Virus record (IMG/VR): IMGVR_UViG_3300018080_001440
Location: 1-25,830 of that record
DNA: 25,830 nucleotides
Strand: one strand, 5' to 3'
Source: a virus
Shown: piece by piece, positions 1-20,331 of the stretch
Position numbering within the stretch: the first letter of the stretch is position 1
Layout: each line of letters opens with the position of its first letter
Notes under the pieces: model-generated
What the model was told of the DNA's origin: nothing
The model's input: the letters and a program-made list of their open reading frames with translations, nothing else
The model's database searches: none
Translations under genes and position numbers: made by a program

Positions 1-644
1 GAACCAGATGATCCAGAAGAACCACTCGTACCAGAAGTCCCTGAGGAACCACTCGTACCTGATGAACCTGAACTACCAGAGGAACCAGAACTTCCACTTG
101 TTCCAGAACTTCCAGAGGAACCACTCGTACCTGAGGAACCTGAACTTCCACTTGTACCTGATGTTCCAGAGGAACCACTCGTCCCAGAACTACCTGAAGA
201 ACCTGAGCTTCCACCTGTACCTGACGAACCACTTGTACCGCTACTACCTGAACTACCACTTGTACCACTGCTACCCGATGAACCTGAGGTTCCAGACGAA
301 CCACTCGTACCTGATGTTCCTGAAGAACCTGATGTCCCACTCGTTCCAGAACTTCCACTACTACCTGATGTTCCAGAAGAACCACTCGTTCCAGAACTAC
401 CACTTGTTCCAGAACTACCTGAACTTCCACTTGTACCAGACGAACCACTTGTACCAGACGAACCACTTGTACCTGAGGAGCCGCTTGTTCCAGAAGAACC
501 GCTTGTTCCTGATGTTCCACTTCTGCCTGATGTTCCAGAGGAACCACTCGTACCTGAGGAACCTGATGAACCTGATGAACCTGAACTTCCACTCGTTCCT
601 GATGAGCCTGAGGAACCACTCGTTCCAGAAGAACCTGAACTACC
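1..644 (-). repeat. Coding Gly-X-Y (GSS/GTS) triplet repeat tract
   Basis: This is the DNA encoding about 71 consecutive Gly-X-Y triplets, nearly all GSS or GTS. The exceptions I see are one GRS and one GTG. There is no proline, so this is not a classical collagen composition. Synonymous codons vary freely (GGT/GGA/GGC/GGG; TCA/TCT/AGT/AGC), so the DNA repeat is imperfect while the protein period is exact; that suggests selection on the protein. The tract continues beyond the left edge, so its length is unknown. Confidence 0.95.
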
Positions 645-1442
645 AGCAGAATCTAACCATATTTCACCATTATATCTATATATATTATTATCATCAAGAG
701 CATAAGCTATATCACCTTCTGTTCCTCCTACTGGTAGTGCTGCGAAATTATTATATGTAGGAATATTTAGAGAACCTCCTACCGTTAGAGCAGTAGATAT
801 ATTCAATGTAGAACCATCCCAAGTAAGATTAGGGTCTTGGTCTATACCTCCTTCTACGCTTCCGCTTCCTCCAAGCGAACCGAATAAAAGTTGTTGAGGT
901 TCTAGATTGGCAAGTCCAGTATCGCTTAGAACAGTTCCTACGTAGATATATCCCTCTATCCACAATTCTCCAGAAGTTGTTATTAGAGAAGGGATATTAT
1001 CCCCCCAGAAATTTAAAACACCAGATTCGTAGTCAAAATGCCATTCTTCTCCATCCCCTCCAGGTGCGGCATCAGGAGAGATTTGGGTAGGAGACCTAGT
1101 CGGGTCGCCATCGTAAACTTTAATAGCATATTGAGCCCCATAGCTAGGTGGAATCCAATTAGTTTCATTAGTTTTCCAAGTTCTATTGGGTGGAGAAGTT
1201 CCATCTTCAACTGTCTTAATAGAAGAGGCTCCTGTTTTAACTAGGATTATAGAAGTATCTATTGCCGGAGGAGTGGATGGGATACTATTATCTTCTATCC
1301 AAACGTGCCTAGAATACGTTGGAACTTGAGATGGAACGGTTTCATTAGCTGGACTTTTATTGATAGATGTGTTAGTCTTAGTAAAACCAGCATCGACTTT
1401 CTTTAATAATAAATCAACTTTTTGAGCATCTGGTACAGCCAT
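1..1442 (-). CDS. Tail-fibre-type structural protein with Gly-X-Y repeat tract (3' end off window)
   Basis: Reading the minus strand from an ATG at 1442 gives 480 codons without a stop up to the window edge, so the C-terminus is missing. The start is MAVPDAQKVDLLLKKVDAGF; the ATG overlaps the stop of the upstream gene as TAATG, which implies translational coupling. Residues 1-150 hold a motif I associate with structural proteins of uncultured marine-type phages: KVD-LLKK near the N-terminus, then RTWKTNETNWIPP, then EWHFDYESGVLNFWGDN and a GYIYVGT strand. Residues about 150-265 are a beta-rich linker containing AYALDDNNIYRYNGEIW. From residue 267 to the edge every third residue is Gly, with Ser or Thr between. 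By position and composition it is probably a trimeric fibre or appendage protein acting in host recognition. The fold and receptor cannot be told. Confidence 0.85.
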   Translation of the reverse strand, partial: MAVPDAQKVDLLLKKVDAGFTKTNTSINKSPANETVPSQVPTYSRHVWIEDNSIPSTPPAIDTSIILVKTGASSIKTVEDGTSPPNRTWKTNETNWIPPSYGAQYAIKVYDGDPTRSPTQISPDAAPGGDGEEWHFDYESGVLNFWGDNIPSLITTSGELWIEGYIYVGTVLSDTGLANLEPQQLLFGSLGGSGSVEGGIDQDPNLTWDGSTLNISTALTVGGSLNIPTYNNFAALPVGGTEGDIAYALDDNNIYRYNGEIWLDSAGSSGSSGTSGSSGSSGTSGSSGSSGSSGSSGTSGSSGTSGRSGTSGTSGSSGTSGSSGTSGSSGTSGSSGTSGSSGSSGTSGSSGTSGSSGTSGSSGSSGTSGTSGSSGTSGTSGSSGTSGSSGSSGTSGSSGSSGTSGSSGTGGSSGSSGSSGTSGSSGTSGTSGSSGSSGTSGSSGSSGTSGSSGSSGSSGSSGTSGSSGTSGTSGSSGSSG

Positions 1443-4847: not shown

Positions 4848-6041
4848 TCATTTCTTCGCGAAAATAAATATGGGTTCTGTATGATGTGTATCTTTGCCAT
4901 TTCTATTGAATTCATTATTTGCTAATCTCATATGGTAAGTCTTTTCTAGTTCCCAGTCTTTATTGCAGTAGGAACATAGATCATTCGCTATTTTATATTT
5001 TTCTATATTCTTGATATTTATTATTAATTTACCATCATCTTTTAAAATTCTTTTACTTTCGTCCACTAATACCCATAGGAATTTATTTAGCCAATCTTGA
5101 TATTCTTGATATCTATTACAGCTTTGGTCGCTATGTTGTGAATAGATTTCTACATTAAAATAAGGGGGGCTAGTAAAAACTATATCATATTTTTCCTTTA
5201 TTGTTGGCATTATTTTTTCGGCACACCCAAGATCAAATCTGAAACGATAATCATGTATTCTTTGTTCTAGCATATCATATTGAGTGGAAAAGAAATTCGC
5301 CATTTTCATGTTCCCTACAGCCGTTTTTCCATTAGGGTCTATCCCATGATACAATATATTTTTACCAGAGGCAATACACCCAGCGAGCCTGCCTCCATAT
5401 CCGGCACAAGGGTCTAACGCCTTCCCATCTTGAGGGCAGTGATTATCATAGATAAATTTAGCGATAACGGGTTTAAAATTACCTACCCCACGAGTTCCAT
5501 TACGGGTCTTTAATATTCTTCTCATTCCAGCAGAATTTGGGATTTTTCCCAATTCTAACCAACGATTTATGCAGTCTTTTAATCTATCATCATTATTGAA
5601 TGTTTCTATAGGAGAATTCTCCCCTCTACTGTAATATGCTTCCATCATATGAAGATGATAGTAATTAGCTAAATCTATACCTTGATGATTCATTTGTAAG
5701 TTGTCATTATCTAATAAAACTTTTTTAGAGCTTATTATCCTGTTCATCCTGTTCTCTCTATGTTCTTTTGTTAGAATATTATGGGGGAATCCGCTCTCTC
5801 TATAGTATCGGAATAAAAGTTCAACCACCTGTTCTTTTTTGTTAAAATCTCCTTGCTGATAAAGCGTCAGTAGTTCTTTAAAATGTTTAGTATCTGATAA
5901 GTTTTCCCAATAAGAAAAAACAGATTGTCTTAAGAGGTCACTTTTTTTTCTATTAAATAATTTTGATTTAATGTTTATAATATTATTTTCGACATCCGAA
6001 ACTCTTAAAATTATATTAGAATTACGTTTATTTTCTTTCAC
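4848..6041 (-). CDS. Orphan DNA methyltransferase (N4-cytosine or N6-adenine type)
   Basis: A 397-aa SAM-dependent DNA methyltransferase. The SAM-binding motif I is DPCAGYGGRLAGC at residues 210-222, followed by an acidic position in YHGIDPN (231-237), and the catalytic motif IV is SPPYF at 291-295. The SPPY form is typical of amino-methyltransferases (N4mC or N6mA), not 5mC enzymes. Residues 1-160 are a charged helical extension that may bind DNA; residues about 10-45 could be a ribbon-helix-helix, though this is uncertain. The start is GTG at 6041 with AAGGAG seven bases upstream, lying inside the end of the endonuclease gene (14-bp overlap). No restriction enzyme is adjacent, so it is probably a solitary phage methylase protecting virion DNA from host restriction. 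The target sequence cannot be read from the protein. Confidence 0.88.
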   Translation of the reverse strand: MKENKRNSNIILRVSDVENNIINIKSKLFNRKKSDLLRQSVFSYWENLSDTKHFKELLTLYQQGDFNKKEQVVELLFRYYRESGFPHNILTKEHRENRMNRIISSKKVLLDNDNLQMNHQGIDLANYYHLHMMEAYYSRGENSPIETFNNDDRLKDCINRWLELGKIPNSAGMRRILKTRNGTRGVGNFKPVIAKFIYDNHCPQDGKALDPCAGYGGRLAGCIASGKNILYHGIDPNGKTAVGNMKMANFFSTQYDMLEQRIHDYRFRFDLGCAEKIMPTIKEKYDIVFTSPPYFNVEIYSQHSDQSCNRYQEYQDWLNKFLWVLVDESKRILKDDGKLIINIKNIEKYKIANDLCSYCNKDWELEKTYHMRLANNEFNRNGKDTHHTEPIFIFAKK

Positions 6042-6663
6042 CTAGATACTCCTTACTGATTCTTTTTTTTCTATTTATCCTAAAACCTATTTTATTACAA
6101 TAGTCAAATGTATTAATAGTAAAGCAAAATGCCTTCTTAAGAGATCGGCTGTTAGAAACTTTTTTCATCCTGCCGTTTTTAACGGACAAACTTGTTAAGA
6201 TATTTTTAAATTCAACCGTCCAAGGAGATATATTCTTAAATCCAACTCTATATCTAATGTATCCATCAGATGCGTTAACTTTGCTAATCCATCCGTCAGA
6301 ATCCATAATCCCCTGTACAAAAGATTTTTTAAAAATATCGTTCTTGTAAATAAAATCAGGTATGACCGTTTTGTCTTTAGTTATTTTTTTTAAAAAATAA
6401 ACTATTTTTTTTGAACAAACAACAAGTTGATAGTAGGAGACTCTATTCCCCTTTTTTACAGTTTTAATATTACTCTTTTTATTAAACATTTCTTTAACTA
6501 TATTTTGACATTTTTCGCAAAAATCGTAATCCTCCGAAGTGATAGAGAATTGATAGGAGTTTTTACCAATATAGAGACAACCATCCCCCAAAAGAGAGCC
6601 TATTAAATAAGCAAAATCGCTTGTATATACATTTTCTAATATCTCGCAATTATTTTTAGTCAT
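6028..6663 (-). CDS. Free-standing LAGLIDADG homing endonuclease
   Basis: A 211-aa protein with two LAGLIDADG helices: YLIGSLLGDGC at residues 19-29 and SFVQGIMDSDGW at 114-125. Each ends in the acidic residue (GD and SD) needed for metal-dependent cleavage. The two motifs are about 95 residues apart, the usual spacing of a single-chain, pseudo-dimeric enzyme. There are no intein splicing blocks, so it is free-standing. It follows the capsid terminator and overlaps the methyltransferase start by 14 bp. The coding DNA is rich in A/T homopolymers, unlike the capsid gene next door, which suggests lateral arrival. It would cut an unoccupied allele of the same locus in a related phage and spread by repair. 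Confidence 0.9.
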   Translation of the reverse strand: MTKNNCEILENVYTSDFAYLIGSLLGDGCLYIGKNSYQFSITSEDYDFCEKCQNIVKEMFNKKSNIKTVKKGNRVSYYQLVVCSKKIVYFLKKITKDKTVIPDFIYKNDIFKKSFVQGIMDSDGWISKVNASDGYIRYRVGFKNISPWTVEFKNILTSLSVKNGRMKKVSNSRSLKKAFCFTINTFDYCNKIGFRINRKKRISKEYLGERK

Positions 6664-8443: not shown

Positions 8444-11400
8444 TTAACGATACATACGTCTTAACTGAATTGTTTCGTCATTGTCAGCATCTCTATTTTG
8501 CTGTTCTAAGCTAAACAATGAAGATATCTTACTCTGTAGTTCATCTACTGAACTAACTTTGTTAGCCTCTTCAAGAGCCTTTGCTTCTTTTATAGCGAGT
8601 TCTTCGCTACTTGCCTCATTTATAATTACGGCTTGAGACATTCCGTCTGATACTGTATCAAGTCCCTTCTTGCCAGCAAAGATAGCTTTTTCGATATCTT
8701 TGATCTGAGCAGACTTATATGTTGAGAGTTCTGCAACTTTTGCTTCAAGACCAGATGATTCAATCATCTTAGCCTGTAACATTTTAGCAGCTACTCTATA
8801 AGCCTCGGACTTCGAATCGCTATCAGTTTTAGCGATTACAGTTCCTTTATCTTTTGTAGTTTTTTCAGAATCTAATTCTTCTTGTCCCATCTGTGCATTA
8901 CCAGTAGCAACGTCTGGATGGTCTTTAGGAGAATCAGGTCTGTCACCTAGTGTTTCACTTTCGTGACCAATCATTGAGGCATTTCCTTTACCTTGAGTAT
9001 TCTCAGGTCCCTTAGCATCGAAAGATTCTTCTTTGCCAATTGTACTTTTGCCTTTAATAGGTTGTATATCTTTGTCATCAGCAACTGGTGCTGGTGATTC
9101 TAACTTTGTAGCTTCAAGAATTCTTTCAGCCAAACGAGATAGACCAGATTGGCTTGAACCGAATCCTGCCATATGCATCAAGTCTTCATCAGCAGATGCT
9201 AATTCCGTTTTACCTTGACCGTTTGTTCCTCCAGTATAAGTGTTGTCTCCTCCACTCAATCCAGCTTCGTCTTCGTGACCCATTGTTGCGTTGTCAGAAG
9301 GGATAACTGGTTGTGGCTTATCTTGAGGATTTAAATCAGTTGGCTCTTGTCCAATAGTAGCATTGTCTCTTGGTACTGAAGGTTTTTGACAGGAGGGGAT
9401 AGTCTCTTTTTCATGTCCCATTTGACTTCCGTTCTCTCCAGCAGTATATTGACCAATATCTTTAGAGTCTTGTGCTTTTTGTTGGCTAATTTCTTTTTCG
9501 CCAGCGGTAATAACATTTAAGACCTTGGATAAGTCCATTCCAATGTGACCAACTTTTCCTTGTCTGCTTTTCATACTAGAAGCTTCCTTAAAATCGTATT
9601 CGTTTTCAGCCAATGTAGGATCTACGTTAACTGTAACTTTCTTTTCCGAGAAAGGCTCCGAAAGTCCTTCTTCTTTTTCTTCATTTTCGAAATTAACTCC
9701 AATTCCATCAACAGGTTTAGACTCAGTCATATCCATCATAGGAGAAGATTCTTCCATTCCAAGCTCTTCAGGAGTAACGACCTCATCGATTCCACCCATT
9801 TCGCTTTCTTCAGCGATATCAGCAGTACCGTCCATATCGAGGTCTTCGTGATGCTCTTCCTCTTCTGGATTTTCGCCTAAAGCAACATCAAGTTGAGCAT
9901 CAAGCTGTTCTACAACGTCCATAGGAAGTTCTAGAGTAATTGTGCCTCCTGCGATATCGCCTCCTGCGAATGGATCTACATCTTCTTCAACGCCAACTTC
10001 AACTTCAAGACCAGAAGGACCATCCGGATCGCCATCTGGCTCTGAGCCGAACTCGTCATTTGAAAGTTCGTCAGCCAACAAGTCTTCAGGAGAAGCAACA
10101 GCAATTTTCAAAGCTTCGCAAACGCTAGCAGCTTGTCTAATGTTGTAACCATTTCTAATTTGGTCTTCAACGCATTCTTCATCGCCAGAACAGTCGTTCC
10201 AACTCTCAGCAACCTTAATAGCAATCTTATCTGTATAGATGTCTGCTTTCTTAAGTTGTGAGCAAACGCATTCAGCAAGAGCCTTACCTTCGCAAGGACC
10301 GCTTAATGCAACAGCGTTTTCGCCAAATCTACGAGAGAGTTTCTCAACGCAACTTTCAGTGGGGAAATCTTCGCCATAACCACCGAAAGCTAATTTGTAA
10401 TCAGCAACGACAGAACCTTCTTTACTAGCAGTTTTAATAGTTTTTAAAGCTCCAGCTTCTTTCAACTTGCTGATAGTTTTAACTTTACCCTTAATGTCAA
10501 GAGCGTCAAACTGAGCTTCTGTAATAGAAACAGATGACAATGCTTTTACAAATCTTTGTTTTGCTCTGTCGCAAGACGCACATTTAACATTGATACCTTC
10601 TATCATTGGGGTCCATTCCCATTGTGCCCATACTTGGTTAGCATCAGCCGATGTAGCAAAGGCAACTTTATATTTAGTTCCTGTATCAAGGCAAACTCTT
10701 TCGCCCGATGCAAGTTTCATAGTATTTGTTGTTCCTGAAGCAGGACTAACAGAACCGAGTTCGATTTTGCTAGATGCAAGCTTTGTTAACATTTCAGGAG
10801 TGATCTTCATCATAGCAGCAACTGCTGGCATTTCGCCCATGTTGCCCATTCCACCCATGCCTTCATCAGCAAGACCAGGCTCTTCTGGCATCTCATACCC
10901 TTCGCCTTCGAAACCTTCTTCTTCTGATTCTCCTTCTGTAGGAGTGGTTTCTGACCAATTATCCATTTCAAGATTAACCTTGATAGTGCCTGAACTTCCA
11001 CAGTTGTTGCATTTCATTTTACCAGAGATAACATCAACGTCTTTGCTTGAGCAAGCTGGGCAAATAGATCCTGGAGGCAGAGGTTCTTCTCCTCCTTCTT
11101 CCATAGTCATTTCGTCAGCCATTGGGTCTTCTGTTAAGTTTTCCATAGGTGCAGCTTCTGCTGGCATACCAGGAACTGATGCTCCGGCTCCAGGTGCTTG
11201 AGATACTCCCCCTTGTCCACCCATCTCTCCACCAAGCATTTGAGCTTCTTTAACAATGTCTTCTCTTGCAGAAGCCATCCCGATATTATTCTCGATTCCA
11301 CCCTGTTGTTCAGGTCTTGGAGATTTTATAGGCTTGCATTCGTCACATTCTCCTATCTCTTCGCCAAGTTCTTCGCCTTCTGGTTCGATGTCGATATCAT

Positions 11401-14400
11401 CGATTGGACCTTCCATAATACCTTCAATATCTTCTGCTCCTATTTCTTCGCCATCAGCAGATACATCTATAATAAGTTCGCCATTATCGCCAACTTGGAT
11501 TTTGATAACTGCTCCAACTTCTTCGCCAAGTTCTTCGTCGAATCCATCTTCTTCACTAATCATTTGTTGTGCGAATTTTTTAACGCCTTCGCAGAATGCT
11601 ACTTTGTTTGTAATGGGAGCATCAATATCAGAAAGTGTTGCTTCGATTCTATATTTACCGTCTTCTGGTCTACCCATAGCTTTAATAGCATTGCTCATAG
11701 CGTCAAACTTACTAGTAACTACTTTAGACCCGCCATTAGAAGCAAGCTTAGTTCTTACCATAGAGTCAACTTTAGCCATAACTGTTTTGTTTCTTACTGC
11801 GTGAGCGATAGAATCAAATACGTCTTCTGCTACCATTCCGAATACACCATTTGCAGAGACTGCAAGAGACAAAGCTTCAGTAGCCGAGATCGAAGAATCT
11901 TTAGAAGCAACCTTGCTAAAATAAGCTGATTTGCTCGCTAAAAGTTTTCTATCTTCTGCTTTATGAGGTAATGAGTTAATGATAGACAAGAATGATACTT
12001 TTGCTCTCAGTTCAGGACTATCAGCGATATTAGAAGCGATCTTTAAGATTTCTTCAGGAGACTTTTGATAATCAGAAATTGCGTCAGCAATAGATGCTGT
12101 AGCAACTTTCATAACTGAGAGGGAGTAATCCTTATTAGCCCATCTCTTAAGACCATCCGTCATACTCATATTTCTGAGTTGGTCTTCTGTGATTGTTTCG
12201 TAAGAACCAACAAATTTATGATTGCTAAGCAATTCTTTTAATTGGTTTTCTGTAATTGTTTCAGTATAATCTTCTGGAACCTTAGAACTTATCATATTGC
12301 TTGCTGCTGTCCATTGCTTTTCAGTGATTACTTCTGGGGTATCGTCAAAACGAACGATTGCAGCACTCGATGAGCCAAGCTGGTCTTCAGTAATAGTATC
12401 ATAAGTTCCTTGACGGACTTGAGGACTATCACTTGTAGTATCATTGCTTTTCTCTGTACCACCTATTTGTTCCTTACTTTCAGTAATTCCCTCATAAGTA
12501 GAATCTGTTCTAGGGTGTAGATCAGTATTCTTCTTCTCTAACTGCTTTTCTGTAATGACTTCTCTGTCCTCTGAGCCTGCCGCTACTTTTGTTTCTTTGT
12601 TGGTAGCCATGTCTACTCCTATTTCTTTTAAACCGGTGTTATTGTTTATTTTTCCTATAACGTTATCGATAGTATCTGTTAACATAGATACTTTAGTTAT
12701 TAATTTTGCATTTATGTCGTAAAAATCCTCTATTTTTCTTGAAGATTGTTTTGGTGCTGTCATTGTGCCTAGTCCGTTCATGTCTGTTGACCCTGCTGGA
12801 GTTGGTGCTGTAGCAGGAACTGGTGGGGCTACTGGTTGAGGCTGTGCTTGTGCTGGAACAACTTCTCCAGTAGTGGTAGCGTTCATTGAAGCGTCTCCTA
12901 CGACGGCAGAAGGGAGTCGAGCATAGCCCATTTCATTCAACTCGTCATAAGTAGCTTGCAAATCAGCCATAGCCTTAACGAGTTCGCTTACATAGTCCAT
13001 CGATACGTTTTCTTTTTGTTTTAACATACTTTGAACAACCATTTCAAGTTTACCCATTGAATCTTTAAGTAAATTAAGTTCCTCAACTCCACCTATTTTA
13101 ACTAAATCTTCTATTCCATCTTCATTAAGACTACTTGAATTTTTAATTAAAGCATCAACAGAGCGATTAAATGAAGCAACCTTTTTTTGAATTTCAGGAA
13201 CATGGAGAATACAGCTTACTCCACAATCATGACAAGCTGGATTAACTACAAATGAATTTTCAATAAATTTCAAACCATAGTTATGTTCAAATATTTGTTG
13301 TTTATTGTGGTCTAAAGCAACAGAAGATTCTTTAGTTGATTTGCAAAGAGGGCATTCCTCATCTGTATCAATTGGACTATTGTGATATTTACAATCTATT
13401 GTCCCAGAATATTTCTTATTCTTTCTACCAGCAATATGTTCGCAATACTCATCTGATGTCTGAGCTTTATTATGACAAACAGAGCAGATAGAATATTCTA
13501 CTGAACAACCCATAGATGTGTTAGACACTGCTATGTGGTTAACGCAATATGTGTGATCATCTTCAACCTCTATATCATAAACCACCCCATCATAATCAAT
13601 CTCTTCAATACTTTTTACTCTTCTTAATGTATTATCTTTTAAATTGTGCCACGATGCTGGCTCTACCTGAGATTTTTCTGCTTTTTTATATATTAATCTA
13701 TCTCTTAATATATCTGGAGTGGTTGTTTTTCCGAAAGTCACTTCATGAACAGGTTTATATCCCCATCTTCCATTAGCTTCTGTGATAATCCTATAATTTG
13801 TTCTGACCCCAATTTTCTCTAAAAGAAGTCTCAATTGGCTAGTTAAGTCTTGAGAAACTATCCCAAAACCATAATATTTTTCTTTAACCTTATAACCGTC
13901 TCCTTCCATAAACCCTGCTATCAACGATGCGGTTTTTGCCTTTCCAAGTTTCATTAGTTTAGAATTGAGAACTTTTCTATCGCTATATTCTCCGCATTTG
14001 TTATAGAACCATTCAGCAACATCTTTACCATAAAGATTTACTCTCGACTGAGATGCTTCAGGATAATAATTGACTGTTGGAGGGTTCCTATGAGAAGCGA
14101 AAGAGGTTTTTAATTTCTCTTCACATTGGTAAGCAAGAGTTTCCAATTCCGTATGAGCAAAACTGAAAATAACTGATTTTCTCTCTCCTTTCCTCTTTTC
14201 ATAACTTCCTTCTGCTAAAAACAATCCTATTAAAAAAGCCTCTTCTTCTGTTACAAAATCATCACAACTATCATCAATATACTTAGGTTCAATCAAAAAA
14301 TCACCATCTTGTAATTCGCAAGCTTTAATTTTTTGAATATATTCCTGATCAAATTCTACAGACTCGCCTCTTAAATTATGTCCTGTTTTAAATTTTCTAT

Positions 14401-15154
14401 TAAAAGTTTTGGAAGTGATTCTCTTGTCTTTTTTTGTAGCCAATTCTTCTTCGCATCCACAAGCACATAGTTTTGGCAATCTATATACCATTATATTATG
14501 ATGAGAAGTGCAAACTAAAGGTTGCTTATTACCTTCTAATTGAATAGAAACTAACGGATAATTATACCCCCTTTCCCTAATTCCTAATACTTTTTTAACG
14601 TTTCCCTTTCCAGAAATTACATAGTCTCCGTCCTCGATATCACATATATTTTTCTCAGTTCCATCCGACATTAATACTGGTGCGTCAGGAGGAAAACATC
14701 CAGTAATATATCCTTCTTCTATTCCTCTTGCTAATTTTGGATAAGCTACTTTGTCAACTCTTCCAATTATAAAAATACCACCTGCCTCTTTGTCGTACCA
14801 AGAGTGAACACATTCGCCTCTCGATTTTTCAACATCGTCATTTTGGTGGTTAGTAAAAAGAGGAACTCCAACAAAAGAAGGAGCCGCTAATTTAAGTTCT
14901 TGAGGCGAAAAAGCGTCACCATTATCATTTACTTCATCTTCTTTAATCGCGAAGACTTTTAAATATAAATGTTCTGGATGCTCTGAAGTCGCTGTCTTTA
15001 AATCAAAACCATTCAAATCTTCATTTTCTGCCATTTTATTAGCAGAAGCTGTTTTGATCTGATTAGGAAGGTTAAAAATCTCCCAACCTTTAGGTTTATT
15101 CAAAGCTGTCACCTCGTGTTTATATGAGAATGTCGCTATTTTTTCAAAAGCCAT
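8444..15154 (-). CDS. Prohead protease fused to giant acidic scaffold-like protein, intein-containing
   Basis: A 2236-aa ORF (1843 after removal of a 393-residue intein). Residues 1-152 plus 546-650 read as a phage prohead serine protease: FVGVPLFTNHQNDDV with probable catalytic His103, GGIFIIGRV, then after the intein TSMGCSVEY with probable nucleophile Ser547, and FIENSFVVNPAC at the domain end. A Cys/His cluster (C557, C560, C571, H573, C588, C601, C604, C641, C644) may bind zinc. After a Pro/Ala linker (768-790) come ITE-x-QL repeats (864-993), Ala/Lys helices, acidic tracts, a zinc ribbon (CPAC...CNNC, 1365-1385), a Cys-rich domain (1525-1680), NATMGHE-like repeats (1907-2092) and a helical C-terminus. 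It is probably a protease plus internal scaffold that shapes and then digests the prohead core. A good ribosome binding site and ATG at 12610 may give a separate scaffold. The start has GGAA upstream. Confidence 0.85.
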   Translation of the reverse strand: MAFEKIATFSYKHEVTALNKPKGWEIFNLPNQIKTASANKMAENEDLNGFDLKTATSEHPEHLYLKVFAIKEDEVNDNGDAFSPQELKLAAPSFVGVPLFTNHQNDDVEKSRGECVHSWYDKEAGGIFIIGRVDKVAYPKLARGIEEGYITGCFPPDAPVLMSDGTEKNICDIEDGDYVISGKGNVKKVLGIRERGYNYPLVSIQLEGNKQPLVCTSHHNIMVYRLPKLCACGCEEELATKKDKRITSKTFNRKFKTGHNLRGESVEFDQEYIQKIKACELQDGDFLIEPKYIDDSCDDFVTEEEAFLIGLFLAEGSYEKRKGERKSVIFSFAHTELETLAYQCEEKLKTSFASHRNPPTVNYYPEASQSRVNLYGKDVAEWFYNKCGEYSDRKVLNSKLMKLGKAKTASLIAGFMEGDGYKVKEKYYGFGIVSQDLTSQLRLLLEKIGVRTNYRIITEANGRWGYKPVHEVTFGKTTTPDILRDRLIYKKAEKSQVEPASWHNLKDNTLRRVKSIEEIDYDGVVYDIEVEDDHTYCVNHIAVSNTSMGCSVEYSICSVCHNKAQTSDEYCEHIAGRKNKKYSGTIDCKYHNSPIDTDEECPLCKSTKESSVALDHNKQQIFEHNYGLKFIENSFVVNPACHDCGVSCILHVPEIQKKVASFNRSVDALIKNSSSLNEDGIEDLVKIGGVEELNLLKDSMGKLEMVVQSMLKQKENVSMDYVSELVKAMADLQATYDELNEMGYARLPSAVVGDASMNATTTGEVVPAQAQPQPVAPPVPATAPTPAGSTDMNGLGTMTAPKQSSRKIEDFYDINAKLITKVSMLTDTIDNVIGKINNNTGLKEIGVDMATNKETKVAAGSEDREVITEKQLEKKNTDLHPRTDSTYEGITESKEQIGGTEKSNDTTSDSPQVRQGTYDTITEDQLGSSSAAIVRFDDTPEVITEKQWTAASNMISSKVPEDYTETITENQLKELLSNHKFVGSYETITEDQLRNMSMTDGLKRWANKDYSLSVMKVATASIADAISDYQKSPEEILKIASNIADSPELRAKVSFLSIINSLPHKAEDRKLLASKSAYFSKVASKDSSISATEALSLAVSANGVFGMVAEDVFDSIAHAVRNKTVMAKVDSMVRTKLASNGGSKVVTSKFDAMSNAIKAMGRPEDGKYRIEATLSDIDAPITNKVAFCEGVKKFAQQMISEEDGFDEELGEEVGAVIKIQVGDNGELIIDVSADGEEIGAEDIEGIMEGPIDDIDIEPEGEELGEEIGECDECKPIKSPRPEQQGGIENNIGMASAREDIVKEAQMLGGEMGGQGGVSQAPGAGASVPGMPAEAAPMENLTEDPMADEMTMEEGGEEPLPPGSICPACSSKDVDVISGKMKCNNCGSSGTIKVNLEMDNWSETTPTEGESEEEGFEGEGYEMPEEPGLADEGMGGMGNMGEMPAVAAMMKITPEMLTKLASSKIELGSVSPASGTTNTMKLASGERVCLDTGTKYKVAFATSADANQVWAQWEWTPMIEGINVKCASCDRAKQRFVKALSSVSITEAQFDALDIKGKVKTISKLKEAGALKTIKTASKEGSVVADYKLAFGGYGEDFPTESCVEKLSRRFGENAVALSGPCEGKALAECVCSQLKKADIYTDKIAIKVAESWNDCSGDEECVEDQIRNGYNIRQAASVCEALKIAVASPEDLLADELSNDEFGSEPDGDPDGPSGLEVEVGVEEDVDPFAGGDIAGGTITLELPMDVVEQLDAQLDVALGENPEEEEHHEDLDMDGTADIAEESEMGGIDEVVTPEELGMEESSPMMDMTESKPVDGIGVNFENEEKEEGLSEPFSEKKVTVNVDPTLAENEYDFKEASSMKSRQGKVGHIGMDLSKVLNVITAGEKEISQQKAQDSKDIGQYTAGENGSQMGHEKETIPSCQKPSVPRDNATIGQEPTDLNPQDKPQPVIPSDNATMGHEDEAGLSGGDNTYTGGTNGQGKTELASADEDLMHMAGFGSSQSGLSRLAERILEATKLESPAPVADDKDIQPIKGKSTIGKEESFDAKGPENTQGKGNASMIGHESETLGDRPDSPKDHPDVATGNAQMGQEELDSEKTTKDKGTVIAKTDSDSKSEAYRVAAKMLQAKMIESSGLEAKVAELSTYKSAQIKDIEKAIFAGKKGLDTVSDGMSQAVIINEASSEELAIKEAKALEEANKVSSVDELQSKISSLFSLEQQNRDADNDETIQLRRMYR
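8879..9436 (-). repeat. Degenerate NATMGHE-type protein repeats
   Basis: Residues about 1907-2092 of the same ORF hold six copies of a short motif spaced irregularly: GSQMGHE, NATIGQE, NATMGHE, KSTIGKE, NASMIGHE, NAQMGQE. Most are preceded by Pro/Asp/Gly-rich linker. Gly-x-Glu is constant, which resembles the small-x-Glu cleavage sites known for T4-type prohead proteases; that link is an inference. Confidence 0.85.
12176..12565 (-). repeat. Degenerate ITE-x-QL protein repeats
   Basis: Within residues about 864-993 of the protease/scaffold ORF there are six or seven copies of a short motif: EVITEKQLE, YEGITESKE, YDTITEDQLG, EVITEKQWT, ETITENQLKE, YETITEDQLRN. Spacing is about 18-30 residues. 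The DNA copies are diverged, so this is an old protein repeat. It could be a binding module for capsid subunits or a set of protease cleavage sites. Confidence 0.85.
12608..12620 (-). promoter_or_regulatory. Internal ribosome binding site and in-frame ATG for a scaffold product
   Basis: Inside the protease/scaffold ORF the minus strand reads AGGAG, five bases, then ATG GCT at 12610, in frame with codon 849. This is as good as the binding sites of the separate genes here. The ATG falls just before the first ITE-x-QL repeat, after the Pro/Ala linker, so initiation would give a 1388-residue protein lacking the protease domain, like lambda Nu3 made from inside gene C. It is inferred from sequence only. 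Confidence 0.55.
13520..14698 (-). mobile_element. LAGLIDADG intein in the prohead protease
   Basis: A 393-residue in-frame insertion, residues 153-545 of the host ORF. It begins with Cys1 (CFPPDAPVLMSDGTEKNICD, block A), has a TxxH block B (LVCTSHHNIMVY), endonuclease motifs FLIGLFLAEGSY and SLIAGFMEGDGY, block F VYDIEVEDDHTYCVN and ends HIAVSN followed by Thr as the +1 nucleophile. The penultimate residue is Ser rather than His, a tolerated variant. Removing it joins EGYITG to TSMGCSVEY, which restores a continuous protease core. Both acidic endonuclease residues (E and D) are present, so homing may still work. Confidence 0.95.
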
Positions 15155-16417: not shown

Positions 16418-16452
16418 AATAAACTTAGAAAATTCCTTTATTTAAGTTTATT
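16418..16452 (-). terminator. AT-only inverted repeat after the 174-aa gene
   Basis: A perfect 10-bp inverted repeat (aataaactta at 16418-16427, taagtttatt at 16443-16452) with a 15-nt loop overlaps the stop of the 174-aa gene. On the minus strand TTTATTT follows. The stem is weak (two G-C pairs), so it may be a leaky terminator or an mRNA-stabilising hairpin between the portal block and the following small genes. Confidence 0.35.
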
Positions 16453-16975
16453 ACCCTTTAACGTGCCGAGGAATATCGATATTCGCTAAATGGCTTAGAT
16501 TATATTCTGGTACTCCCTTTGGAAAAGGAATTCCCCATTTGTCAGACGCATGACTATAAGCAGCGACAACTGTCGAGAAATACTCGCCACTTGGAGCATA
16601 TATCTTTGCTTTTGGGTCATCAGGTAGCTTTTTAACTCCCGCAAAATATCTTTTCTTAAGGTCTTTTGTTACAGCAGGACCAACAACTACGAAATAATCA
16701 GAGTTAGTTGTATAGTCATGTCCCTCAAATCTCATATATGCCTTAGGTCCAATTTCTTTATCAAATTTCTTTTTAAGACCAATTGATTTCTCGTGATATT
16801 TTTCTTTCCAATTAATTCCCCTATCTTTAATTTTCTTACGTCCAGCTTGCTTACAAAGATTATCATATTCTTCTTTGCTCATCTTTAGAATATCTCCAGA
16901 AAAGATAGATGCTTCTATCTTTTTCCTGGCAACCTCGACATCAGATTGTATCTGTTTTAAATTAAATTTTTCCAT
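16451..16975 (-). CDS. Portal-coupled protein of unknown function
   Basis: A 174-aa basic protein whose ATG overlaps the portal stop codon (TAATG), so it is probably translated by re-initiation after the portal. Residues 1-65 are helical and Lys-rich (MEKFNLKQIQSDVEVARKKI, SKEEYDNLCKQAGRKKIKDR). Residues 78-174 look like a compact alpha/beta domain: GPKAYMRFEGHDYTTNSDYF, VVVGPAVTKDLKKRYFAGVK, KIYAPSGEYFSTVVAAYSHA, WGIPFPKGVPEY. I do not recognise the family and see no catalytic motif. Position after the portal suggests a head-assembly or portal-associated part. Confidence 0.72.
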   Translation of the reverse strand: MEKFNLKQIQSDVEVARKKIEASIFSGDILKMSKEEYDNLCKQAGRKKIKDRGINWKEKYHEKSIGLKKKFDKEIGPKAYMRFEGHDYTTNSDYFVVVGPAVTKDLKKRYFAGVKKLPDDPKAKIYAPSGEYFSTVVAAYSHASDKWGIPFPKGVPEYNLSHLANIDIPRHVKG

Positions 16976-19900
16976 TAGACTGTCCCTATTAGTATTAATT
17001 GTCCCATTTTATTAGGCATCTCAATTATATTAACACCTACTTTTCCTTCGTTAGCGACCATGTAATCATAAATTGGATTACTGCTTTCTCCATATCCAGC
17101 TGCATATTTCATAAGAGAGTGTCTGTCATTTGCTGATTTCTTAGATTTAGTAGCTTCTATTATATTTTTAGCGATAACCTCTTTAACGGCATTTGTCTGT
17201 TCTTCAACAGCGTCATCTCTAAATCTTAAAATCCTCCAACCGACATTAGCCAATTTTTGATCTCTAACCATATCTCTCTGTTGAAAATCTTCTCTTTGGT
17301 GCCAAATAGCCCCATCTGTTTCCACTCCAACTCCTATCTGAGGGTAAGCGAAGTCAAGGACAAACGGTCTTTGCTCGCCAGGAACTTTAACTTGGTATTG
17401 AGCAAATAATTCATGAGGAGATGGTATCTGTTGCAAAACTTTTAACATCTGTTGTTCTAGTTTCGTAAATTTTATCATCTGAGGCTGTGGTTGTTCTTGT
17501 TCTTGCTCAGCTCCACCTCCACCTCTCTTAGTTATCTTAGGCATATCGGCTCCAGCCGCAGCTCCCATAGGAGCAGCTCCTCCCATACCCATATCTCCTC
17601 CAGGCATTCCACCAGGTGCTCCACCAGGTGCTCCCCCCATATCTCCACCAGGCATTGCTCCAGCCATGTCGCCTCCAGGCATTCCACCTCCCATGTCGCC
17701 ACCGCCCATGCCCATAGTCCCCAAGTTGCCTCCTCCAGGCATTTGTCCTTGAGGTCCAGCCATAACTTGCTCTTCTCTTATCTTTTCAATCTCAGCATCA
17801 TAATCTAAATCCATCTCCTCGCAAATTGTTTGCATAGAAACTCCACCTTTATCATACCACTGCATAAGGGTTTGTATTTTATTTGTTTTATCTCTCAACT
17901 GCAAATCATTCCAAACCAACTTAGGATACAGATAAACTGTCTCTCCAAGCATTTCAGATTCCGACTCATCAATAAACCCTTGCATCATAGCAATAGGAAG
18001 GAAGATGTGTTTCTCCACCCACTCTTTAAGTTTATTACGCCAGTTATCAAGTCTCCTAATAAGAACCTCAATACCGACTTGGGCAGAGTTGCCCTGGATG
18101 GCTATTTTTCCTCTTCTCATAGTTACAAAAAGGTTATAAGGAACTTCGAAGCAGTAAATTTTGCCACTATATTGTTCCTTAGATATTTCTCGATTAGCAT
18201 ATTTTTTAGATTTAGATTCTAATACAGGGTTTTTGCCTTTAAGACCTTTCGAAATATAGACTACGTATTGTTGAAGATTAGTTGTATATTCGTGTCCAGT
18301 TTTATTAAAATATCTTTTACTGTTTTCTTTTTTATTGCATTCTGATATCTTGACAGTATATCCGCACTTAAAAGCTATCTCCGCGAAATCGTTAGCCAAT
18401 TGAGGACTGGAGGTATAATAAGCTGAATTAGTATTTTTTCTAAATTCATCTATTTTATTGCATTCACATCCGTCACCATTCATCATCGCTTCAATAACTA
18501 TCTCTAAACATTCAGAAGTCAAGTTTTTTATGAATGAAGATAATTTTTTATTTATTGCTCCATGTCCAAAATTAGTTTTAAGATATTCTGCAAGAGCAGG
18601 TTTATATACGGATATGCTCTCGTCATTATCATAATGAGTTTCAAACATATCTTCGAATAGTCCGTCAATATCTTTTCTAGCTTTTCCGAATTTAGATTGG
18701 CCAATTTGAATTGTTGTGCATTTCTGAGTTCTATTTTTTCTTTTTTCTTCTTTAGTCCAACCTTCAGAGACGTAATATCCTATTAATTTACAAAAATCAT
18801 AGATAGTATATTCTTCTTCTCCTATTTCTATAGATTTTTGGTAATCCCCCTCAAATCCATCTACTGTTCCTATGAATTTAGCTCTTTTTTTTACGTTCTT
18901 GGCTTCAATAAAATCATATTTATTTCCATCACGTTTTTGAGAATACATTTTATGATTAGGGGTACATAAGAAATCTATTTTATCGGTTTGAAAATGAATC
19001 ATTTCTCCTTCATAATCATAAACCCACTTCTCTATATATGGATGATATTCCATCTCTTTCGTATCTGGATTATAGCAAGCGATTTTATCATTCTTGTCTA
19101 TTTCGTCGTATTTTTTGAACCCAGAATCGGTTAAAGTGAGAGTCTTTTCGTCCATGCAGTTGTAACCACCCATTTCCCCGTTAAGAATTGCTTGATTAAG
19201 CATTAATCCATCAAGAATTTCTTTTCCGATATGTTCTAATTCTTGAGTAATATTATGGATTTTCCCCGTTGCTCCGTACCACTCATAATCAAAAGCATGG
19301 TGAGTAACGATAGTAAGGTTAGGGTCATTAGCCACAGCACCTAACTGCTGAACAACGTCCTGCAGATCTTCTTCTGTTGCTGGTCTTTTCTCATCTCCAA
19401 CTTTTACTACTCTAACAGGTAAAATTAATCTTTCTGCTATAATCCAGTTAGCTGTCATTATTTTTGTCTTGTAAGCTAGCATAGTAAATAGTCTTTGAAG
19501 CATAGAGACACCGTATGTCCCGTAAGGGCTTGCATTATGTCTGATATGACTTATAGATCTGTCGGAGAGAGGGATGTCTTGACCTGTAGAAATAAGATTT
19601 ATTAATTCTTTAGGAAGGCTTTCATATAAGTCTCTTGGCTCTTTTCTTGAAACAAGCATCTTCAATTCTTCGTCTGGTTTTAAGAAAAACTTAGGATCGT
19701 TTGCGATACTATTTGTTTTTATATCCATATAATCTGGATTTAATATTTTGACGGATTTAAAACCACCATCTGGGTGGTTGCAAGGTTTGCCATCTGGCTT
19801 AACTCCTCCTCCACGACAATGAGGGCAATCTATTTCTAAGAAAGGAAAAACATCTCCTAGCAAGAAATATTCATGACTTATCTCGTTAAGTCTTTCCGCT

Positions 19901-20331
19901 AATTCTAATTTATCTACAGCTCGTTCGAAATACTTTAAGATCTTTTTCTTTTTGCATTCGAGTTTAAAGCCATTCATACTAAAATTACTATAAAAATCTA
20001 CTCCTGCAGCTACTTTAGGTTCATTCATATAGTAGAACCTTGACCATTGGTAAATTTCCCTTCTCTTACTAGCTATCTGCCAGTTCTGAGGAGTGTGTAA
20101 TGGAGAGAAGAACATAGGCTGAGCCCATACTGCATTAGCTCCTGAACCTGCGAATTGAGCATTCTTAGTTATAGGTACGTTTACATTATGAGATGTTGCA
20201 TATCTCTTGCTTATGACATCAGCAGCTTTTACAGCAGGAGTATCCATGCTGTAGGCTCCTGTAGCGGCTGTTTTTCTTCTTATAGTTTCAGGAGAATTGT
20301 CTATTTTCATTTTTATAGGTTTTAATGCCAT
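16975..20331 (-). CDS. Portal protein with intein and C-terminal DUF559/Vsr-like nuclease domain
   Basis: An 1118-aa ORF (761 after intein removal). Residues 70-391 plus 749-850 are portal-like: the WQIASKRREIYQWSRFYYMN helix, YFLLGDVFPFLEIDCPHC with a possible zinc knuckle (C169, C172, C184, H186), ILNPDYMDIK, HIRHNASPYGTYGVSML, NWIIAERLILPVRVVKVGD and the conserved GEMGGYN/SAQVGIEVL stem region where the intein sits. Residues 858-940 are a Met/Gly/Pro-rich linker. Residues 950-1062 read as a DUF559/Vsr-type PD-(D/E)XK domain: TKLEQQML (E959), FVLDFAYP (D993), VGVETDGAIWH (E1004, D1006, H1011), RDMVRDQKLANVGWRILRF. The portal forms the dodecameric DNA entry ring at one capsid vertex. A nuclease on it is unusual. 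ATG has AAAAGGA upstream; the stop overlaps the next gene. Confidence 0.82.
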   Translation of the reverse strand: MALKPIKMKIDNSPETIRRKTAATGAYSMDTPAVKAADVISKRYATSHNVNVPITKNAQFAGSGANAVWAQPMFFSPLHTPQNWQIASKRREIYQWSRFYYMNEPKVAAGVDFYSNFSMNGFKLECKKKKILKYFERAVDKLELAERLNEISHEYFLLGDVFPFLEIDCPHCRGGGVKPDGKPCNHPDGGFKSVKILNPDYMDIKTNSIANDPKFFLKPDEELKMLVSRKEPRDLYESLPKELINLISTGQDIPLSDRSISHIRHNASPYGTYGVSMLQRLFTMLAYKTKIMTANWIIAERLILPVRVVKVGDEKRPATEEDLQDVVQQLGAVANDPNLTIVTHHAFDYEWYGATGKIHNITQELEHIGKEILDGLMLNQAILNGEMGGYNCMDEKTLTLTDSGFKKYDEIDKNDKIACYNPDTKEMEYHPYIEKWVYDYEGEMIHFQTDKIDFLCTPNHKMYSQKRDGNKYDFIEAKNVKKRAKFIGTVDGFEGDYQKSIEIGEEEYTIYDFCKLIGYYVSEGWTKEEKRKNRTQKCTTIQIGQSKFGKARKDIDGLFEDMFETHYDNDESISVYKPALAEYLKTNFGHGAINKKLSSFIKNLTSECLEIVIEAMMNGDGCECNKIDEFRKNTNSAYYTSSPQLANDFAEIAFKCGYTVKISECNKKENSKRYFNKTGHEYTTNLQQYVVYISKGLKGKNPVLESKSKKYANREISKEQYSGKIYCFEVPYNLFVTMRRGKIAIQGNSAQVGIEVLIRRLDNWRNKLKEWVEKHIFLPIAMMQGFIDESESEMLGETVYLYPKLVWNDLQLRDKTNKIQTLMQWYDKGGVSMQTICEEMDLDYDAEIEKIREEQVMAGPQGQMPGGGNLGTMGMGGGDMGGGMPGGDMAGAMPGGDMGGAPGGAPGGMPGGDMGMGGAAPMGAAAGADMPKITKRGGGGAEQEQEQPQPQMIKFTKLEQQMLKVLQQIPSPHELFAQYQVKVPGEQRPFVLDFAYPQIGVGVETDGAIWHQREDFQQRDMVRDQKLANVGWRILRFRDDAVEEQTNAVKEVIAKNIIEATKSKKSANDRHSLMKYAAGYGESSNPIYDYMVANEGKVGVNIIEMPNKMGQLILIGTV
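17146..17484 (-). other. DUF559/Vsr-like nuclease domain at the portal C-terminus
   Basis: These bases encode residues 950-1062 of the portal ORF. Order and spacing match the DUF559/Vsr group of restriction-endonuclease folds: an N-terminal Glu (E959), D993 in LDFAYP, the E-x-D of VETDG, a nearby His, an R-D-x-x-L helix and a final strand WRILRF. All the acidic residues expected for metal binding are present, so it may be active. It is in frame with the portal, with no stop or internal start with a good binding site in between. Confidence 0.75.
17512..17760 (-). repeat. Met/Gly/Pro-rich linker repeats in the portal protein
   Basis: Residues about 858-940 repeat short units such as MPGGDM, GGAPGGAP and MGGGDMGGG, then turn into an EQEQEQPQPQ stretch. 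The tract is low-complexity and probably disordered. It tethers the nuclease-like domain to the portal core and gives it reach. Confidence 0.85.
18088..19158 (-). mobile_element. LAGLIDADG intein in the portal protein
   Basis: A 357-residue in-frame insertion, residues 392-748. It begins CMDEKTLTLTDSGFKKYDEI (block A), has block B DFLCTPNHKMY, endonuclease motifs KLIGYYVSEGW and VIEAMMNGDGC, block F KIYCFEVPYNLFVTMRRG, and ends IAIQGN followed by Ser as the +1 nucleophile. The penultimate position is Gly rather than His. Excision joins NGEMGGYN to SAQVGIEVLIRR and restores the portal core. It shares architecture but little sequence with the intein at 13520-14698, so this is not a recent copy of it. 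Confidence 0.95.

What the first reader, a model, noticed from the sequence alone, without database searches (positions are those of the whole stretch)
17146..17484. Portal protein fused to a DUF559/Vsr-like nuclease domain
Seen: the portal ORF continues past a Met/Gly-rich linker into a domain with E959, D993, E1004-x-D1006, H1011, an RD-x-x-L helix and WRILRF. Known: this order is typical of DUF559/Vsr PD-(D/E)XK nucleases, usually free-standing or fused to other DNA enzymes. Inference: a nuclease tethered to the DNA entry/exit ring could trim packaged ends, help headful cutting, or act on host DNA at injection. I do not know of a described portal-nuclease fusion.
Basis: partly seen in the sequence, partly recalled or inferred. 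Interest (0 to 1): 0.75.

Follow-up and report, generated by a model that had tools for sequence, protein, structure and literature searches.

The report
Giant-phage portal carrying a built-in nuclease
A family of very large, uncultured bacterial viruses has permanently attached a DNA-cutting enzyme to the ring through which its DNA enters and leaves the virus head. The arrangement arose once and has been kept intact since, which suggests it does an important but still untested job.

Summary
The 1,118-aa portal gene (16975-20331, minus strand; one 357-aa intein at residues 392-748) runs without a stop through a ~100-residue Gly/Met/Pro-rich disordered linker into a DUF559 domain (Pfam E 1.8e-9). 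AlphaFold and structure search give a Vsr-like PD-(D/E)XK fold (Z 13.9 to 3hrl, 13.2 to I-Bth0305I, 10.8 to Vsr).

It is not an assembly artefact: 27 distinct contigs, up to 548 kb, have the same one-chain fusion. They form one clade (100/99 support) beside Bacillus phage G-like portals that lack the domain. Active-site residues are nearly invariant, nuclease dN/dS (0.04-0.10) is like the portal core's, and one member has an intein inside the nuclease active site. The terminase keeps its own nuclease motifs, so this enzyme is additional. An unknown gene follows the fused portal in all 27.

Most likely it is a nuclease tethered inside the head that works on phage DNA during packaging or head completion, like the separate T4 gp4. 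An injected anti-host effector is the main rival. Function is untested. Portal-enzyme fusions (PBECR, 2H, InPase) are described; I found no described portal-DNase fusion.

The parts
16975..20331 (-). Portal-DUF559 fusion gene, 1118 aa before and 761 aa after intein removal
   Evidence: ORF; PHROG portal E 5.9e-40; DUF559 E 1.8e-9
19159..20331 (-). N-extein: disordered N-terminus plus most of the portal core (residues 1-391)
   Evidence: 32% identity to phage G gp14 over the aligned parts; portal fold matches for the L042 homologue, Z up to 20
18088..19158 (-). Intein with LAGLIDADG-type domain (residues 392-748), GGYN|C...QGN|SAQVG
   Evidence: precise absence in L002; LAGLIDADG_3 E 0.002, below curated cut-off; tblastn hits of this stretch to many phage proteins
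17764..18087 (-). C-extein part of portal core, ending at the crown (residues 749-856)
   Evidence: core HMM mapping; homologue's structural alignment to lambda/T4/SPP1 portals reaches about this point
17470..17763 (-). Gly/Met/Pro-rich flexible linker, ~100 aa, with a conserved xKRG island before the nuclease in the main clade
   Evidence: length 101-121 and 51-61% G+M+P in 19 members measured; pLDDT about 25 in the L042 model
17125..17472 (-). DUF559 / Vsr-like PD-(D/E)XK nuclease domain (residues 954-1069); catalytic candidates E959, D993, E1004, D1006, H1011
16978..17124 (-). C-terminal tail (residues 1070-1118): K-x-[AS]-[AST]-type motif, then a small predicted helix-strand-strand unit; main clade only
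   Evidence: alignment A4; model
16451..16975 (-). 174-aa gene of unknown family, start overlapping the portal stop by one base; a homologue follows the fused portal in all 27 members
   Evidence: no significant match in Pfam, PHROGs or PDB

Best explanation
The gene makes a portal ring (twelve subunits assumed) in which each subunit carries, on a ~100-residue flexible tether from the crown (C-terminal, inner) end, an active PD-(D/E)XK DNA endonuclease. Up to twelve nuclease domains would sit inside the head at the DNA entry/exit point. The most likely job is processing the phage's own DNA during packaging or head completion (trimming or resolving ends and branched structures, or a second cut beside the terminase's), as the separate TnsA-like nuclease gp4 does in T4. 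Shown here: the fusion, the predicted fold, active-site conservation, a single clade, strong constraint, and a terminase with its own nuclease motifs. Inferred: twelve-fold assembly, luminal position (from P22-type portal topology), catalysis, and the packaging role. How the packaged genome escapes cutting is not known; structure-specific substrates, DNA modification, or the always-present downstream protein are candidates.
For: Fusion in one ORF in 27 distinct contigs, never as a separate gene there. Exactly one DUF559 match per fused record, including the 548-kb G001. All DUF559-bearing portals form one clade, 100/99, with no detected loss. D993, E1004 and H1011 are invariant in 26 domains, D1006 in 25 of 26. 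Nuclease dN/dS 0.04-0.10 against 0.02-0.10 for the portal core and 0.12-0.35 for the tail. Portal and nuclease distances correlate (Mantel r 0.90; 0.72 within the main clade; 0 of 5000 permutations as high). L016 has a 379-aa intein exactly inside the ExD active-site motif, E|C...HN|CDG. Fold. Model of the L042 homologue: ordered portal core, disordered linker, ordered nuclease. P22 portal C-terminus extends inside the virion (PMC5290284). T4 gp4 is reported to have non-specific DNase activity required for packaging (PMC7824862). No gp4-family protein was found in the fused-clade records searched. Clade-wide slow evolution fits a core virion function better than an arms-race effector (inference).
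Against: No biochemical data exist. An unrestrained nuclease beside the packaged genome is hazardous. The gp4 family was not detected in phage G either, so a nuclease of that kind is not needed in every relative, and its absence does not show replacement. T4 gp4 and this domain show no sequence similarity. Luminal placement rests on homology of portal topology only and is not shown for this clade.
Confidence: 0.42

Rival explanations
1. Virion-borne effector: the nuclease is released from the portal by the head protease, or acts at the portal, and is used against host DNA, plasmids or competing phages at injection, with phage DNA protected by modification.
For: MuF-toxin and portal-PBECR/2H/InPase fusions are interpreted as packaged and injected effectors (PMC5576092, PMC5512222). 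A long flexible linker is present and a probable head-protease/scaffold gene lies in the same cluster. Methyltransferase genes are common in these genomes, five matching stretches in the 548-kb record. The always-present short downstream gene sits where an immunity gene would.
Against: Polymorphic effectors vary and are swapped; here one domain type is kept across the whole clade at portal-like dN/dS. The recurring KxA[ST]-type motif, a possible maturation site, lies in the tail after the nuclease and was not seen in the linker of the sequences checked. Methyltransferases are also in relatives without the fusion.
Confidence: 0.3
2. Captured homing endonuclease: the domain descends from an EDxHD/Vsr-type homing endonuclease and still promotes spread of the portal allele.
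For: Second-closest fold is the homing endonuclease I-Bth0305I; the same genes are full of intein-sized insertions; a related homing-type endonuclease gene lies next to the capsid gene of Chryseobacterium phage MA9V-2.
Against: Present in every member of the clade and inherited with the portal, not sporadic; no DNA-binding module is predicted between portal and nuclease, only disordered linker.
Confidence: 0.06
3. Catalytically dead structural or DNA-binding domain that organises DNA at the portal.
For: Nuclease folds are sometimes reused as binding modules (general knowledge).
Against: Candidate catalytic acidic residues and His are essentially invariant in 26 domains; domains that lose catalysis usually lose these.
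Confidence: 0.07
4. Assembly or annotation artefact joining two genes.
For: None found.
Against: Same uninterrupted join in 27 distinct contigs from many metagenomes.
Confidence: 0.01

Closest known systems
Bacillus phage G portal gp14 (phrog_16240 portals)
   Same: homologous portal core (32% identity over the aligned parts) and a C-terminal Gly/Pro-rich extension
   Different: ends after the linker with a short tail; no DUF559 match anywhere in the phage G genome
Portal or MuF fusions to PBECR (predicted RNase), 2H and InPase domains (PMC5512222); MuF polymorphic toxins (PMC5576092)
   Same: an enzymatic domain covalently attached to a head or portal component
   Different: different enzyme folds, with PBECR predicted to act on RNA; MuF toxins reported as diverse and exchanged. 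Here one PD-(D/E)XK DNase-type domain is kept across a whole clade
T4 gp4 head-completion nuclease (TnsA-like, phrog_218)
   Same: PD-(D/E)XK-fold virion-associated nuclease additional to the terminase nuclease
   Different: separate protein, no detectable sequence similarity, family not found in the fused clade
I-Bth0305I / Vsr / DUF559 (3hrl) nucleases
   Same: fold and active-site motif
   Different: free-standing or fused to DNA-binding modules; not on a portal

Membership tests
DUF559 / Vsr-like PD-(D/E)XK nuclease | Profile match above curated cut-off | tested here: met
   PF04480 37.9 bits against cut-off 20.6; 14 of 17 records, all fused ones
DUF559 / Vsr-like PD-(D/E)XK nuclease | Characteristic alpha/beta core fold | tested here: met
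   AF2 core pLDDT above 90; Z 13.9 / 1.6 A / 92 aligned to 3hrl, Z 13.2 / 2.4 A / 96 to 3r3p, Z 10.8 / 2.5 A / 101 to Vsr 1cw0
DUF559 / Vsr-like PD-(D/E)XK nuclease | Catalytic acidic residues and His kept | tested here: met
   invariant in 26 sequences except D1006, which is E in L048
DUF559 / Vsr-like PD-(D/E)XK nuclease | DNA cleavage | not testable with these tools
   needs biochemistry
Tailed-phage portal protein | Portal profile and fold | tested here: met
   phrog_16240 E 5.9e-40; intein-free homologue L042 aligns with lambda, T4, SPP1 and HK97 portals, Z 16-20
T4 gp4-type head-completion nuclease | Sequence homology to gp4/TnsA-like family | tested here: not met
   hhalign probability 0.4%
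T4 gp4-type head-completion nuclease | Nuclease needed to complete DNA-filled heads | not testable with these tools
   needs phage genetics
MuF / portal polymorphic toxin | Variable, exchanged C-terminal toxin domains | tested here: not met
   one domain type, one clade, inherited with portal
MuF / portal polymorphic toxin | Short immunity gene downstream | tested here: inconclusive
   an unknown short gene follows in 27 of 27; role unknown
EDxHD homing endonuclease | Sporadic distribution tied to a mobile element | tested here: not met
   clade-wide, inherited with the portal

The most novel reading that the evidence does not exclude
A lineage of giant phages has built a second packaging or head-completion DNase into the portal ring itself, giving up to twelve tethered nucleases at the DNA entry point inside the head, controlled by a dedicated companion protein encoded by the adjoining downstream gene.
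Probability: 0.25. Interest if true: 0.8.

Novelty: new variant of a known kind. Interest (0 to 1): 0.62.

Why it matters
Portals are usually thought of as DNA channels and sensors that recruit a separate nuclease (the terminase). A clade where the portal itself carries a conserved DNase would mean that DNA cutting can be part of the permanent virion vertex. It raises a sharp question, how a packaged genome of about 0.5 Mb survives next to tethered nucleases, and gives a concrete, testable route into packaging in giant phages that have no cultured member in the collection searched.

Tried and rejected
Artefact: rejected, 27 contigs. Replacement of the terminase nuclease: Pfam terminase models and the phage G terminase found nothing in the fused clade, but phrog_2 did, and the acidic motif positions of the RNase H-like nuclease are kept in the aligned terminases. 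Isolates: no portal-DUF559 fusion in 50,697 phage records; the three weak domain hits were a hypothetical-protein region in Bordetella phage PHB09 and two Chryseobacterium phage proteins, of which the one scanned is homing-endonuclease-like. A scan of bacterial genomes gave only distant DUF559 relatives, 25-43% identity. Restriction-modification partner: methyltransferases are common but also present in non-fused relatives, so not specific. gp4 replacement: no gp4 family in the fused clade, but none in phage G either. Literature searches for portal plus DUF559 or portal-nuclease fusions found no description of this architecture; the library is open-access papers only. The absence of DUF559 in non-fused relatives rests partly on fragments, but phage G and LR745208 are records of 498 and 485 kb.

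Full report
What is there. The window is a 25.8-kb virus record. Its minus-strand genes form a head-and-tail cluster: the portal (16975-20331), an unknown 174-aa gene, a 2,236-aa gene whose only head-related PHROG match is a weak head-maturation-protease hit, a major head protein, and a tail-fibre-like gene. The portal ORF is 1,118 aa. Residues 392-748 are an intein: the close relative L002 (95% identical in the core) lacks it and reads GGYN-SAQVG through the site. After splicing the protein is 761 aa.

The domain. DUF559 matches at E 1.8e-9. A 26-sequence alignment leaves D993, E1004, H1011, D1020, R1023, D1024, G1031, W1032, R1036 and F1037 invariant. AlphaFold gives a core with pLDDT above 90. 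Structural alignment puts it closest to DUF559-like 3hrl (Z 13.9), the I-Bth0305I catalytic domain (Z 13.2) and Vsr (Z 10.8); a profile search of PDB sequences independently returns 3hrl and 3r3p.

The fusion. The model of the intein-free L042 homologue (761 aa, from a 547,943-bp contig) has an ordered portal core (residues ~76-497), a disordered linker (493-597) and an ordered nuclease (600-713). The core aligns with lambda, T4, SPP1 and other portals (Z 16-20), in several up to near their C-terminal crown ends. The linker is 101-121 residues and 51-61% Gly+Met+Pro in the 19 members measured. In P22 the portal C-terminus extends inside the virion (PMC5290284), so the nuclease is inferred to hang inside the head; this is inference for this clade.

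Relatives. Scans with the nuclease and the portal alignments gave 27 distinct sequences, the window included, with both halves in one ORF. L003 and L004 are identical over 16.5 kb and count once. L010, whose contig ends before the C-terminus, cannot be scored. More distant portals of the phage G type (L005, L021-L032, L006) have no DUF559. A maximum-likelihood tree of 412 portal-core columns puts the 25 fused members long enough to include, plus L010, in one clade (100/99), so a single gain and no observed loss is the simplest reading. Long branches (L006, L021) make the sister group unsure.

Constraint. dN/dS of the nuclease is 0.04-0.10 in five pairs, like the portal core (0.02-0.10) and mostly below the tail (0.12-0.35); dS is near or above 1 in many comparisons, so the ratios are rough. 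Portal and nuclease distances are correlated (Mantel r 0.90 over 24, 0.72 in the main clade; 0 of 5000 permutations as high). In L016 a 379-aa intein lies between the E and the D of the nuclease ExD motif; joining its flanks gives E-C-D-G. Inteins characteristically sit at conserved active sites of important proteins (general knowledge), so this independently points to a constrained active site.

Function. The clade's terminases (phrog_2) keep the Asp positions of their RNase H-like nuclease, so the portal domain is extra. T4 has the same doubling: terminase plus gp4, a TnsA-like nuclease whose DNase activity is reported to be needed for packaging (PMC7824862), although gp4 itself shows no sequence similarity. 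That analogy, the clade-wide retention and the slow evolution make a packaging or head-completion role my first choice (0.42). The effector reading (0.30) follows described portal and MuF fusions (PMC5512222, PMC5576092). Homing and structural roles are less likely.

Companion gene. A short protein is encoded directly after the portal, often overlapping its end, in all 27 fused loci, including the divergent L017-L020 group, and was not found in phage G, LR745208 or other non-fused records. It has no significant match in Pfam, PHROGs or PDB. It is a candidate regulator, but clade-specific co-inheritance alone could also explain it.

Novelty. Portal domains fused to predicted RNase, 2H and InPase enzymes are published (PMC5512222). 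A portal fused to a PD-(D/E)XK DNase, fixed across a giant-phage clade, was not found in the papers or phage records searched. I file it as a new variant of a known kind.

Noticed in passing
window 18088-19158; L012, L016, L020, L046 portal ORFs: Portal genes of this clade carry none to four large insertions, most of intein size, at about four core sites (core-model positions ~26, ~34-46, ~251-269, ~305); L020 has four.
   Followed up: partly
L016:4438-5574: A 379-aa intein sits exactly inside the nuclease active-site motif (E|C...HN|CDG).
   Followed up: yes
window 8444-15154 and L003 9542-16327: The long protease/scaffold-like gene carries an intein at two different sites flanking the TSMG motif in the two phages (G|C..N|TSMG and TSMG|C..N|CSVEY); the L042 genome's copy lacks both.
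   Followed up: no
window 8444-15154 and other structural genes: A [KR]-x-A-[ST] motif occurs 14 times in the 2,236-aa gene against 2.8 expected by shuffling, and a similar motif follows the portal nuclease in nearly all main-clade members; possibly a maturation cleavage site.
   Followed up: partly
window 4848-6663: An N6/N4 DNA methyltransferase-like gene overlaps a LAGLIDADG endonuclease gene.
   Followed up: no
window 3-1442: Tail-fibre-like protein with a long Gly-Ser-Ser/Gly-Thr-Ser collagen-like repeat that runs to the window end.
   Followed up: no
L064, L065 (record of L022): The terminase gene of this phage G relative is split: two pieces matching phage G gp1 lie about 660 bases apart with stops, suggesting an intron or insertion.
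   Followed up: no
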